From the NCBI GenBank assembly GCA_032622095.1, contig CP136064.1, positions 128,203,605 through 128,267,604 on the forward strand: a stretch of DNA of 64,000 nucleotides, given 5' to 3'. Both the position numbers and the translations under genes were made by a program. The notes under the pieces were generated by a model that saw only the letters and a list, made by a program, of their open reading frames with translations, was not told the origin of the DNA and searched no databases. Below, piece after piece: positions 32,201-38,200 of the stretch. The DNA comes from Siphonodentalium dalli (lineage: Eukaryota; Mollusca; Scaphopoda; Gadilida; Siphonodentaliidae). Numbering within the stretch: position 1 is the first letter of the stretch; every line of letters begins with the position of its first letter.

Positions 32201-35200
32201 ATAAATGTAATATTATAATAAGACAAACATTAATTATCTGCCAACCATCTGTTCATGCAGCCAACAAGAATTGCTGACAAAAATTACATTGTTTCCCTCC
32301 AAAGTTTGAGTAGTTCAAACCATCATTATGTTAGCATACGTTGTTCCAAGGAAGATAACTCTATCTTTTAATACATCATGTCATTGAACATTTGTCCATG
32401 TGTAAAATCCGGCGTCTTCTGGTAAAAATAGCATCATGTTCTGATAATTCATCATTGCAAAACAATTGAGTATCAAGTGTCAGACAAGAACGGAATCAAA
32501 ACTCGACTATTGGTATGGCGAGGGATGGTAACAAACCTATATAACATAGCCATTTATTGATGGATTCTGATAGTTTGTGGTATGTGAGTTAATTTAATTG
32601 TCATGTGCGACAGATGTACACAGAAAATAGGGTCCACCCCAATTTTCTAACCAGAGTTATGGCACTTGTTTCTATTTATAAAAATTTGATGTCTGTTAGC
32701 GTGATAACTTGAACAAATGTCAACCAATTTCATTCATATTTGGTGTATGGATCTTTCACAGCAATATCTTGATCAAGTTCGAAAATCGGTTTTGTCTGAT
32801 CTATTACCTGAGTTATGGCCCTTAGTTCATCTATTTTTAGCAATTGTAGGATATTTTATGCACGTTAGCATGATAATTTTAACAAACATCAACCAACTTC
32901 ATTCATATTTGGTACATGTATATGGATCTTTTACAACAATATCTTGGACGAGTTTGAAAACAAGATTTATCCTATCCTTTTTACCTGAGTTACAGCCCTT
33001 AGTTTGTCTATTTTGAGCAAGTACCGAGTTTTGATAAGCTACAGCGGCCATGGTGGCTGGAGCCTGGGACGCTCATAGATGGCCTAATATTTGGAAATAA
33101 CATTTTAACCCTTTGATGACTAAATACTCTCTGTTGAGTAACTAACTTTGGTAATGTTCAGATAGTGTTCTCTCATTATTTCTGTGGCTTCCATTCTCGA
33201 ACAAACTGTAACTGCTACAGGAAGCTTTTATTGAATCCTTTCATGACAGGAGCTGTGCTGGTGCAGCATTAAATATCCTGTGCCAGTGCATTCTGTTATA
33301 TATGCGAGTCTCCCATAGGGAGCCTCCCATATATAAGAGAATGGACTGGCTTACAAAGTCAAGGTCAATATTATTAAGCTATGTATTCTCGTATATATGC
33401 GAGGTTCCCTATGGGAGACTCGCATATATAAGAGAATGCATTGGCACAGGGTTTTCGCTAAATTTCAGGAAGCTCTATTCATGGAAGGTTTAAAACCATT
33501 TGATGACTAAATACTCAATGACAAGTAGTTCACTTGGGAGTTCAGCGAACGGCCTTGTTGAACTTTACCATATCTGAACACTCCTTCCAAAAGACGGAAC
33601 AATAATCATTCCAATGTATACTTTTAGAACTGAATAGGAGATTTAATTCAGTAATGAATGGTTTAAAACAAATGTTTGAACTTATAACCATTTTTGTTAT
33701 CAGGAAGGTCTAGGCAATGGTGAACTTACTGGAACATTCTGTGGCACTCCAAATTATATCGCTCCTGAAATTCTCCGAGGTGAAGAGTATGGTAGGTCTC
33801 CAGTTGCCGAGCAGTGAAACTAACAGAGTTTTCTCTTCACTTTTAGATCTAGCTGTGTTGTCAAAACATTTGTCACTTAAGACTCCAGATTCAGTCAGAG
33901 TCTTTAGAATTTATAAATCATGTTGTTTAGGCTCAATGGGCCAGGCACCAGCCTGGAGTGAATTATCAGGGGAGGTGACTTCTCTCTGTTGCAGCAATAA
34001 AGGTGAAATGAAGTGGGCTGGGCGTCTCCCAGGGCAATGTGTATTTAGAATCATTGTATTTGAACCACTGAAATCAGATAAAGCTAAAGTAAATTATAGA
34101 ATGTTTCTTACATAACCCAGTTTTTGAACGTGCAGCATGTTTGCGACAACTAAGAATTATAACCAAGCAAATATAGCTCTATTTTATTGCTCATATCTTT
34201 ATATTTTTGGTCGATCGCGTACTTTGACCAGGTTAATTTTTGACTGCCATATGAACAGTCACTCGAAATGTGTGATTTTTTAAGTTAGTGGGTGATTGAT
34301 CTTGCCCAACTACAAAATTATGGTGAAGCTAGCAAGAATAGGGAGAAGTTATCGCTCTTGTCCCTCTCCCAGCTGGTTCCTGCAGTGAGCCATAGAAATT
34401 TAATTTAATTTTTCTTAGGCTGGTAACTGTACTCATAAATAATTCCACAAAATTTGAAGAAAAAAAAATAAGAAAAAAAATACACTGACCCATATTATAA
34501 ATTTAGTGTCAATTTCAGAGAGTGGGGAATTGAAAAAAAAAAAGCTACTTATGTCACACTCTGTATAAGTCACACTGATGCTGAGCTCTAGTCATACTAG
34601 GCTGTATACTGGCATTTTAAGTTTTATGCAGAGTTTCATAATATGTGTTCTCAAATCAATATTTACTGGTCACAAAACCAATGTGCCAACTAATACTTGG
34701 GGTTCCATTATCCCCTGATTGAGTATAATCAGCCTGAGAAATGAAAAATTAATTTACACTTACTTCCAAAAGATAGCCAGATACAGTTTACACATATGTG
34801 TGATTTCTGACATGTGTTGCTCTTGCCAATGAAAAATGTATATCACATGACCCTAAATCTATGCATGCACTGGCATTTCTTATATGAAGAAAAGATATGG
34901 GAGAATGTTATTTTTTATATAGTCAACTCACCTTATTGATAATCGATATGCTGATAGTGTTGCCACACTATATACAGTGTAAAGGTCATCGGATTATGTG
35001 GTTGTTGTACACAATCACTATGTGTGTATTACATGTAACATTACGCATTCCCTTTCATATGACTTTTCATGTAAGAATTATCCTTACAGTAATATAACAA
35101 CCCATGTAGATGGCATATGTGCATGCAGTCAACCTGGCTATTTATTCTCTTCACAAAAAGCAGGACAAAATTTCTGATGCTTCAAAAGAGTTGACTGAAT

Positions 35201-38200
35201 ATGTCTCTGTCTCATCTTCTAAAGGGGAAAGAACTTCTAGCAGCAATTTGCACATTCAACCATATTTGTGTTTATCTCTACCCTCCATTATAACTAGTTT
35301 ATTGTTTGTCCTTACTTCATTCACTTCTATTGTTTAAAATAAATAGGAGGGTCTATTAAACAGAGTTGACAAACACATTTTGTGGCACGCCTAATTATAT
35401 TGCCCCAGAAGTTTTGCGAGAAGAATATGGAATAAGCAAATTTTCTGTATCAACAGTATGATTCATGCAACCTTGTTTGCATATGATGTTCATATAAAAA
35501 TTAGCGCTATAACAACCCATGTCTGACGGCATATGTATGCGTAGCTCAACCTGGCTATTTATTCTCCTTCCACTCTCATATAGCAGGACAGACATTCTGG
35601 TGCTTCAAAAGAGTTAACTTATTAAAAAATTACTCAGAATTATTTTTCCTGCTATTTTCTTTTAGTTACTATGTCTAAGAAAACTGATTGAGTCATTGTT
35701 CAACTTAAAGAATGTATTTTAACGAATTATTGAAATTTCAAGCACATTTTCACTGCATACTTGTCTTTCAGAGAGTAGGATTTCAGTGAATTCTGGATAT
35801 TAATTCTTATTACCTATGTCAAGGTAATTCTTGTATTTTCATACGTTGCATCTTACATATAGTTATACATACTGCTTTTATGTTCTTGGAACAATTACTC
35901 TGATTTATTAGTAGTAATCCTACAATTGATGACAATTGAGAAATATTTATGTTTTGTTCAGATTGAAATTGAGTTTTACAATTCACACATGAGCTTTTGA
36001 ATATAGGTATCTGATGTTGATAAATACAGTAATGCCCTAAGTAATCGACCCCTTAATCACAGCAGAATTATGGGTAACTTTTCAGGATTTAGTCGGAAAT
36101 ATGGCTTGTTGCACCGAGAGCTTTCTGATGAATGGCAACAAGCCATATTTCCAACTAAATCCTGAAAAGTTACCCATAATTCTGCTGTGGTTAAGGGGTC
36201 GATTACTTAGGGCATTACTGTATGTTAAATGTTCATATACTTTTATCAGTTTTCTTGGCATTCTTTTCTCAAATTATTACCATCATTCTGTGGTGGCATC
36301 ACAATCAAAACATCCAAATGCGTCCACCTCAGAAATGATTGTTTGGTTCCTAACTGCTCCTTTAAATGAAGCTTTCTGTCACTTGATTTGAGTTGTGTAG
36401 ACTTCATTGTATTACATTCTATTCTTCAATTTTATGAATGTTTTGGGTTCAATGATCACTATGGTTGAATTTGCATTAAAAGAAAAAAATCATTAAATGA
36501 AAACTTGGGATTCTCAGAAATTTATTTCTTATGCTTTATTTTATTTTTTAAATTGATATATTCTGAAATTTATATAATTCATATCTAAAAAAAACTCTAT
36601 GCTATATATGTTGTGTGCCACAGATTCTAAAAATAATTTGAAGAAGTTATTTAAAAATAAACAAAAACCCAGCTTGTGTGCTTTTATTTTGGTCTTAAAC
36701 ACAATTTTTTCTTAGTCAAAATACATACAACACAATCATCAACTTGACGATAGGTACCTGTAACTCATGGTATGAGTCAATTCAATTTACTGTGGTCACT
36801 CTGCTATGCCTCCTCATCTGAAGGAGAAAGAAATTCTGGCAGAATTATGCACATTCAACCATATTTCTTTTTATCTCTCACCTCCAGTAGAACTAGTTTA
36901 TTGTTTTTTCTTACTTCATTCACTTTTATTGTTTTATTTTGAACAGGAGGGTCTAATAAATGGAGAGTTGACAAATACATTTTGTGGCACGCCTAATTAT
37001 ATTGCCCCAGAAGTTTTGCGAGGAGAAGAATATGGTATAAACAAATTTTCTGTATCAACAGTATGAATCATGCAACCTGCTTGCAAGTATATTCACATCA
37101 TCATTCATACATCAGCATGCATTATTAATACCCAGGGAATAACCCTTCTAGAAATACAAATGATGACACAGTACCCCTTTATTATTATTCATCATACCAG
37201 AAAACCAAAGTTTGTATATTTTTAAATGACCAGATACTTCATTTTTTTTTTATTATACAAATTCAGCTGTATGGGCCTAGGATGGTCAGGGGAGGAGCCA
37301 TTAGGACATAAAATATAGAACAATCAACATATAAGTAGTCGCTGCAAGGGCAGATAATTTATGAGTTGCAAATTATTGACATATATTTGTGTTCATAAAA
37401 TATATTTTAAGAAACTAAATCTTCTGGAAATGAAGCTGTCTGAACAAAATGTTTCACTTGAATAATTAGCCACTCAGCTAGTGCAAGCTTTGTGGGATAA
37501 TTAATTACACTTTTTCGAGAATGGCATTTCCTATAAGAATCACCACTTCTTTACATAACATCACATCACCTGTCTTGAAGCATGTCATAGATCTGTTTTT
37601 GGTGAATTCATAAAAGTAAAACAGCTTTTCGTTTATTGTAATCAGAAAACTGCATGATAATCGGTTACATATGTTTACACACAGATCATGCAAGTATTTA
37701 CTGTGACCTAATCTTTATTGTCAAACCCAGATTATCATTCAATTAGAGTATACCAGAGATGCAGTGTTGCATGAACTTCAGAAAATGTTGAAATACTAAC
37801 ACAAAAGAATTTGTCTATGATATATTATTGCATTGAGTTAAACAAATACACTCATTCAAGATATTTTTAGAGTTAAACAATGGTACCTTTTCATTGTCCA
37901 AATGGCGAACAGAGTCCATCTTGATACAGACGACTTCATATTAATTAATGTTCAATCTTTTAAAGTCGAGAATTGGTTGATATTCATTATAATTAATTTA
38001 TATAGTTAGCATCCTCAGAATATTATGTTGAAAGAATAGACTTATATGTCAACTCTAAACAACCTGAAAATTGTTTGAAAACGAACTGTTAATATATTGG
38101 TATGTGAGATTTCCTTCGACTGAACGGAGAAATGTTTACTGATTAACGTTTTTGAATGAGCCATATGCGAGTGATGATGATGATGATTATTTTTTTAAAT

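What the first reader, a model, noticed from the sequence alone, without database searches (positions are those of the whole stretch)
33704..37034. Mutually exclusive activation-loop exons in an aPKC gene
Two intact 88-nt exons (33704-33791 and 36947-37034) encode the same activation-loop segment with the same phases. Of 29 full codons, 12 are identical, 14 differ synonymously and 3 change the residue. This pattern shows long purifying selection on both copies. Joining both adds 176 nt and shifts the frame, so they can only be used alternatively. The changes (Gly to Ile and Gly to Asn) fall just before the PDK1-phosphorylated Thr. The choice could therefore tune activation or substrate fit of the kinase. 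I know of no described aPKC isoform pair of this kind.
Basis: partly seen in the sequence, partly recalled or inferred. Interest (0 to 1): 0.9.

Follow-up and report, generated by a model that had tools for sequence, protein, structure and literature searches.

The report
Alternative activation-loop exons in aPKC
An animal gene for the cell-polarity kinase aPKC carries two intact, long-preserved versions of the exon for its on-switch loop, which by their reading frame must be used one at a time; this is probably a real but ordinary-type case of alternative splicing, not yet shown in RNA.

Summary
The window carries an atypical PKC gene. Its activation-loop exon exists as copy A (33704-33791) and copy C (36947-37034), both 88 nt, same phases, intact AG/GT sites. 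Of 29 codons, 12 are identical, 14 differ synonymously and 3 change the residue. A alone or C alone gives the same-length 357-residue C-terminal part of the protein; both or neither gives early stops. Neutral simulation never kept so few changes (0 of 20,000 runs from each copy). Between them lies B (35347-35429), a dead duplicate of C with two indels and no donor GT. B and C differ at 3 of 83 exon bases but 22 of 141 upstream intron bases, so the exon was probably constrained after C reached its present place. The region occurs twice in the assembly, about 190 kb apart, most likely as two unpurged haplotypes; both carry A, B and C. Best reading: a mutually exclusive exon pair with A as default. 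Against it: C has the only one of ten donors without G at +5, and no RNA or relative was on hand. New member of a known kind.

The parts
8097..8225 (+). aPKC exon with the C1 (zinc-finger) domain
   Evidence: tblastn with recalled human PRKCI, 74% identity; acceptor GCAG, donor GTAAGT
25562..25726 (+). aPKC kinase exon k1 (glycine-rich loop)
26516..26613 (+). aPKC kinase exon k2
28371..28507 (+). aPKC kinase exon k3
28998..29083 (+). aPKC kinase exon k4 (catalytic loop YRDLKLDN and DYG), ends in phase 0
33704..33791 (+). copy A: activation-loop exon [29 protein letters not shown] + 1 nt; donor GTAGGT (7 of 9 consensus matches)
35347..35429 (+). copy B: dead copy of C with a 2-nt and a 3-nt deletion and no donor GT
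35205..35481 (+). duplicated unit holding B with its intron flanks, similar to 36804-37085
36804..37085 (+). duplicated unit holding C with its intron flanks
36947..37034 (+). copy C: alternative activation-loop exon [29 protein letters not shown] + 1 nt; donor GTATAA, weak, no G at +5
41650..41775 (+). aPKC kinase exon k5 ([11 protein letters not shown]), completes the split codon as GAT (Asp)
43118..43197 (+). aPKC kinase exon k6
44749..44954 (+). aPKC exon k7 (end of kinase domain and turn-motif region)
48510..48597 (+). aPKC last coding exon k8 ([18 protein letters not shown], stop)

Best explanation
A and C are a mutually exclusive pair of exons for the activation loop of a single aPKC gene. 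An old duplication of the loop exon gave two copies, and both have since been held to nearly the same 29-residue protein segment while their silent positions drifted to saturation. The spliceosome joins exon k4 either to A or to C and then to k5 (inferred). Transcripts with both or neither shift frame and end early, so they would be removed by NMD or give dead kinase (frame shown, fate inferred). A, with the stronger donor and the sequence nearer to human aPKC, is probably the default; C, with a weak donor, is probably the regulated form (inferred). The two kinases would differ at two loop positions before the PDK1-site Thr (position 4 Gly or Ile; position 10, directly before the Thr, Gly or Asn) and in one conservative Ile/Val, so a modest tuning of priming, loop order or substrate handling is the likely effect (inferred). 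Later, the C unit was itself duplicated in place with its flanks to give B, which has since died.
For: Gene and exon model. A-only and C-only give full open frames; both or none give stops. Purifying selection: 14 synonymous and 3 replacement codons, NG86 dN 0.129 and dS 2.47, 0 of 20,000 neutral runs from each copy with 3 or fewer changes. In-place constraint: B and C differ at 3 of 83 exon bases against 22 of 141 upstream intron bases, Fisher p = 0.007, uncorrected, one of three comparisons. Both assembled copies of the region, probably two haplotypes, carry A and C with identical exons. No other aPKC locus that could be the source of C among the scored matches. A and C share N5, E7 and L8 against human PKC iota, which fits origin from one exon of this lineage.
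Against: No RNA was available. C's donor (ATG|GTATAA) is the only one of ten intact donors in the window's part of the gene without G at +5, and ties with k3 for the lowest consensus match, 5 of 9. The slow exon divergence of B and C is not clearly different from the 3' flank (4 of 51; exon against 3' flank p = 0.43), so a gene-conversion tract could mimic selection. No inter-intron RNA pairing stands out (z from -1.39 to +2.29 over 28 pairs, 25 shuffles each). No relative could be compared (searches found none). Of the three replaced positions, two also differ between A and human PKC iota and the third is Ile/Val, so the functional difference may be small.
Confidence: 0.72

Rival explanations
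1. C was a working alternative exon for a long time but has recently fallen out of use, like B; it is a fresh relic with a decaying donor.
For: Weak donor of C without G at +5; its duplicate B is already dead, so turnover of this exon is real.
Against: C has no indel, no stop and intact AG/GT in both assembled copies.
Confidence: 0.15
2. C is used mainly as a regulated poison exon: joining A and C shifts the frame and lowers aPKC levels through NMD.
For: A plus C gives an early stop.
Against: A poison exon needs no conserved protein; C kept 26 of 29 residues over saturated silent change, and skipping both also breaks the frame.
Confidence: 0.06
3. C came late from a lost or distant second aPKC gene (ectopic exon capture), so its codon pattern reflects selection elsewhere and not in this gene.
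For: Saturated silent divergence from A and no flank similarity to A's introns found at a minimum length of 40.
Against: No second aPKC gene among the scored matches; C shares N5, E7 and L8 with A against human; lower B/C divergence in the exon than in the upstream flank suggests constraint in place.
Confidence: 0.05
4. The pair is an assembly artefact, such as two haplotypes joined inside one intron.
For: This assembly does hold two near-identical copies of the region about 190 kb apart with a 100-N gap between them.
Against: A and C lie in gap-free sequence in both copies, differ far more (23 of 87 nt) than the two copies of the region do around them (blocks of 98.6 and 99.7% identity), and B lies between them in both.
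Confidence: 0.02

Closest known systems
JNK1 (MAPK8) exons 6a/6b
   Same: An alternative exon pair inside a kinase domain; zebrafish jnk1a and jnk1b exons 7/8 correspond to human 6a/6b, and a role in substrate choice is discussed (passages of PMC7259801).
   Different: Other kinase family and another segment of the domain (recalled); RNA evidence exists there and not here.
Aplysia PKA catalytic subunit alternative exons (Beushausen et al. 1988, recalled, text not seen)
   Same: Molluscan AGC kinase with alternative internal catalytic-domain exons (recalled).
   Different: PKA, not aPKC; the alternative block is recalled as lying before the activation loop; not checked here (a related paper is not held; listing gave no such paper).
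Aplysia PKC Apl III splice insert
   Same: Spliced isoform of a molluscan aPKC; nervous-system-enriched insert (passages of PMC5650170).
Oyster AOX duplicated exon 10 and molluscan muscle myosin MXE clusters
   Same: Duplicated exons used alternatively in molluscs (passages of PMC5589949; PMC3912159).
   Different: Not kinases; AOX is a terminal-exon case with an alternative 3' splice site.

Membership tests
Mutually exclusive exon pair (criteria as in PMC5740500, passages) | Neighbouring internal exons of similar length | tested here: met
   Both 88 nt, with only the dead copy B found between them
Mutually exclusive exon pair (criteria as in PMC5740500, passages) | Sequence similarity and same reading frame and phases | tested here: met
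   26 of 29 residues identical; phase 0 in, phase 1 out for both
Mutually exclusive exon pair (criteria as in PMC5740500, passages) | Usable splice sites on both exons | tested here: met
   AG/GT on both; C's donor is weak and its use in cells is untested
Mutually exclusive exon pair (criteria as in PMC5740500, passages) | Joint inclusion absent, or frame-breaking if it occurs | tested here: met
   Joint inclusion and double skipping both give early stops
Mutually exclusive exon pair (criteria as in PMC5740500, passages) | Splice-junction reads for each exon to its constitutive neighbours | not testable with these tools
   No RNA data on hand
Atypical protein kinase C | PB1, C1, kinase and C-terminal domains in order | tested here: met
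   PB1-like exons at C4:128199381-128200292, left of the window; C1; Pkinase and Pkinase_C
Atypical protein kinase C | Best solved-structure match is aPKC, not another PKC | tested here: met
   PKC iota 638.2 bits against 388.6 bits for the next PKC
Atypical protein kinase C | Glu in place of the phospho-site in the hydrophobic motif, and Thr in the activation loop | tested here: met
   FEGFEY, and [12 protein letters not shown] in both isoforms; meaning of the sites as in PMC7104321 passages

The most novel reading that the evidence does not exclude
A lineage of animals has evolved a splice-selected pair of activation loops in its single aPKC gene, so that cells choose between two polarity kinases with different priming at the PDK1 site or different substrate handling, and the exon repeatedly duplicates and dies (A, C, B). 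This would be an alternative activation loop in aPKC, of which no case came up in the listings.
Probability: 0.35. Interest if true: 0.65.

Novelty: new member of a known kind. Interest (0 to 1): 0.45.

Why it matters
aPKC sets cell polarity and is implicated in memory in Aplysia and mammals (passages of PMC7104321). The passages I read describe its isoforms through separate genes, start sites or hinge-region inserts. A natural pair of activation loops in one gene would give a clean way to ask which loop residues set priming and substrate choice in an otherwise identical kinase. It is also a useful case of exon duplication in which one copy was kept under strong constraint and a further copy has died.

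Tried and rejected
Exon capture from a paralogue: no second aPKC gene among the scored matches, and the C unit with its flanks has only the B and C places of the two assembled copies (4 matches), so it is not a common dispersed repeat. RNA docking between introns: 28 pairs of 300-nt flanks, none clearly stronger than shuffles. Rbfox-type motifs between 33401 and 37400: GCATG at 34135, 34863, 35121 and 37115, too few and too common to mean anything. Relatives of the protein: genome contigs gave 5 pattern stretches, none confirmed; viral contigs gave none. Species: a mollusc haemocyanin search was empty, but its controls were empty too, so it says nothing; a paper search by karyotype and size gave no identification. 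A promoter scan around A was irrelevant to a eukaryote. The loop peptide as text in papers: 0 papers. Read-through of C into the intron ([10 protein letters not shown], then stop) faintly recalls the next exon's FSV; treated as chance. A blastn of the stretch between the two copies against the window printed no block over 1,500 nt.

Full report
What was checked. The window is C4:128203605-128267604 of a 2.23-Gb assembly in nine contigs. PB1-like exons lie just left of the window, at C4:128199381-128200292, with a further upstream exon at 128202109-128202216. With splice sites set by hand the C-terminal part of the gene gives a 357-residue open frame. It matches PKC iota structures at 638.2 bits against 388.6 for the next PKC, and carries Pkinase and Pkinase_C. 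It is an atypical PKC.

The exon pair. Copy A (33704-33791) and copy C (36947-37034) are both 88 nt, start in phase 0 and end in phase 1, with AG and GT at their borders. They encode [29 protein letters not shown] and [29 protein letters not shown]. Of 29 codons 12 are identical, 14 synonymous and 3 replacement; of 23 base differences 16 are at third positions; NG86 gives dN 0.129 and dS 2.47, which is saturated and rests on only 29 codons (two other estimators in the same call failed). In 20,000 neutral simulations from each copy with the same number of base differences, the fewest residue changes was 7 against 3 observed. So both copies spent a long time under selection for the protein they encode.

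Why one at a time. Splicing in A alone or C alone restores the same frame; splicing in both, or neither, runs into stops soon after. This does not prove that the spliceosome never joins A to C, only that such an RNA could not make the kinase.

Copy B and the order of events. B (35347-35429) is a copy of C with a 2-nt and a 3-nt deletion and no GT at the donor. B and C are similar over about 280 nt including intron on both sides, whereas no similarity of A's flanks to theirs was found at a minimum length of 40. So the order is: an old A/C duplication, then a local C/B duplication, then death of B. Since the B/C duplication, 3 of 83 aligned exon bases differ against 22 of 141 in the upstream intron (Fisher p = 0.007, uncorrected, one of three comparisons made) and 4 of 51 downstream (exon against downstream p = 0.43). 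This suggests that the exon was constrained in its present place, but a gene-conversion tract over exon and downstream flank could give the same picture.

Two copies in the assembly. Stretches sampled from window 7960 to 61600 recur about 190 kb upstream in C4. All 125,605 bases between C4:128078000 and the window's start were fetched, and one run of 100 N, at C4:128082029-128082128, is the only gap there. Sequence about 0.7 kb before that gap (C4:128080600-128081299) has its counterpart just beyond the window's right end (C4:128271719-128272485, 91% with indels). So one copy seems to end at the gap and the other to start there. The main collinear blocks are 95.9 to 99.7% identical, those around A to C 98.6 and 99.7%, with insertions of 1.4 and 2.1 kb between the copies. 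I read this as two unpurged haplotypes; a recent tandem duplication with a gap at its junction is not excluded. Both copies carry A, B and C, with A (221 bases with flanks) identical and one difference each in the B (277) and C (381) stretches, outside the exons.

Splice-site strength. Of ten intact donors of the gene in the window, C's (ATG|GTATAA) is the only one without G at +5, and its consensus match of 5 of 9 ties with exon k3 for lowest; A's is 7 of 9. The acceptors of A and C are comparable (10 and 11 pyrimidines of 16). This fits a weaker, regulated exon C, or one that has begun to decay.

What the change could do. Against PKC iota ([28 protein letters not shown]), both A and C carry N5, E7 and L8, so they share a history; they differ at position 4 (human R; A Gly; C Ile), position 10 (human S; A Gly; C Asn; directly before the Thr) and position 23 (human and A Ile; C Val). 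The Thr and the whole [11 protein letters not shown] run are kept in both, and Pfam scores both as kinases (220.3 and 222.0 bits). That aPKCs are phosphorylated by PDK1 in this loop follows from the literature (passages of PMC7104321); the exact Thr is recalled. A modest effect on priming or loop order is my inference; nothing here tests it.

Genome context. A protein search with C's 29 residues gave 132 matches; the best six are A, B and C in the two assembled copies, and the others match at 74% identity or less. I saw no other pair of short PKC-like loop exons lying close together in that list, judged by eye.

Literature. Five searches on aPKC, PKC or kinase activation loops with alternative or mutually exclusive exons and one for the loop peptide as text (0 papers) listed no such case. 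Searches listed all their hits (8, 15, 10 and 4); one search listed 12 of 1,420. I judged them from titles and abstract starts, and read passages of three. The library is open-licence PMC papers only. Other passages read cover JNK exons 6a/6b, the human MXE criteria, oyster AOX duplicated exons, PKA catalytic subunits and molluscan myosin MXEs. The Aplysia PKA alternative exons are recalled, not seen.

Verdict. The mutually exclusive reading is the best one at 0.72. What is missing is any RNA or any relative. As a kind it is familiar (duplicated exons used alternatively, known in kinases); the gene and the segment are new as far as the searches reach.

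Noticed in passing
G000:C2:149826753-150603706 (example L017): About 96 of 135 Pkinase matches (my count by eye) lie in this 0.78-Mb cluster, most of them uninterrupted kinase ORFs of about 281 codons with the same or nearly the same score. In L017 two units lie 2,889 bp apart with identical kinase ORFs, and each also holds seven repeats spaced 252 bp with open frames. The kinase looks TSSK-like (recalled). A satellite-like array that carries an intact kinase gene.
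   Followed up: partly
C4:128019003-128082028 and the window: Probable unpurged duplicate of the aPKC region, main blocks 95.9-99.7% identical, with a 100-N gap between the copies; gene counts from this assembly may be doubled in places.
   Followed up: yes
C4:128082399-128146362 and C4:127868913-127946587: Arrays of a repeat unit (spacing about 7.4 kb in places) upstream of each aPKC copy; part of the unit also occurs on other chromosomes.
   Followed up: no
36947-37066: C's frame reads on past its donor as [10 protein letters not shown] and then stops; FSV recalls the next exon's FSVDWW, and the 3' flank is well kept between B and C (47 of 51 aligned bases). Chance, a relic, or a rare alternative end.
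   Followed up: no
36001-36246 and 33272-33455: Long hairpins (112- and 71-nt arms, 89 and 90% complementary) in the introns around A and C. The first has relatives at 25810-26028 and 54196-54425, so it looks like a small dispersed inverted-repeat element.
   Followed up: partly
58003-59441 and 61909-64000: Tandem arrays with a 164-bp unit, right of the aPKC gene; the second runs to the window's end.
   Followed up: no
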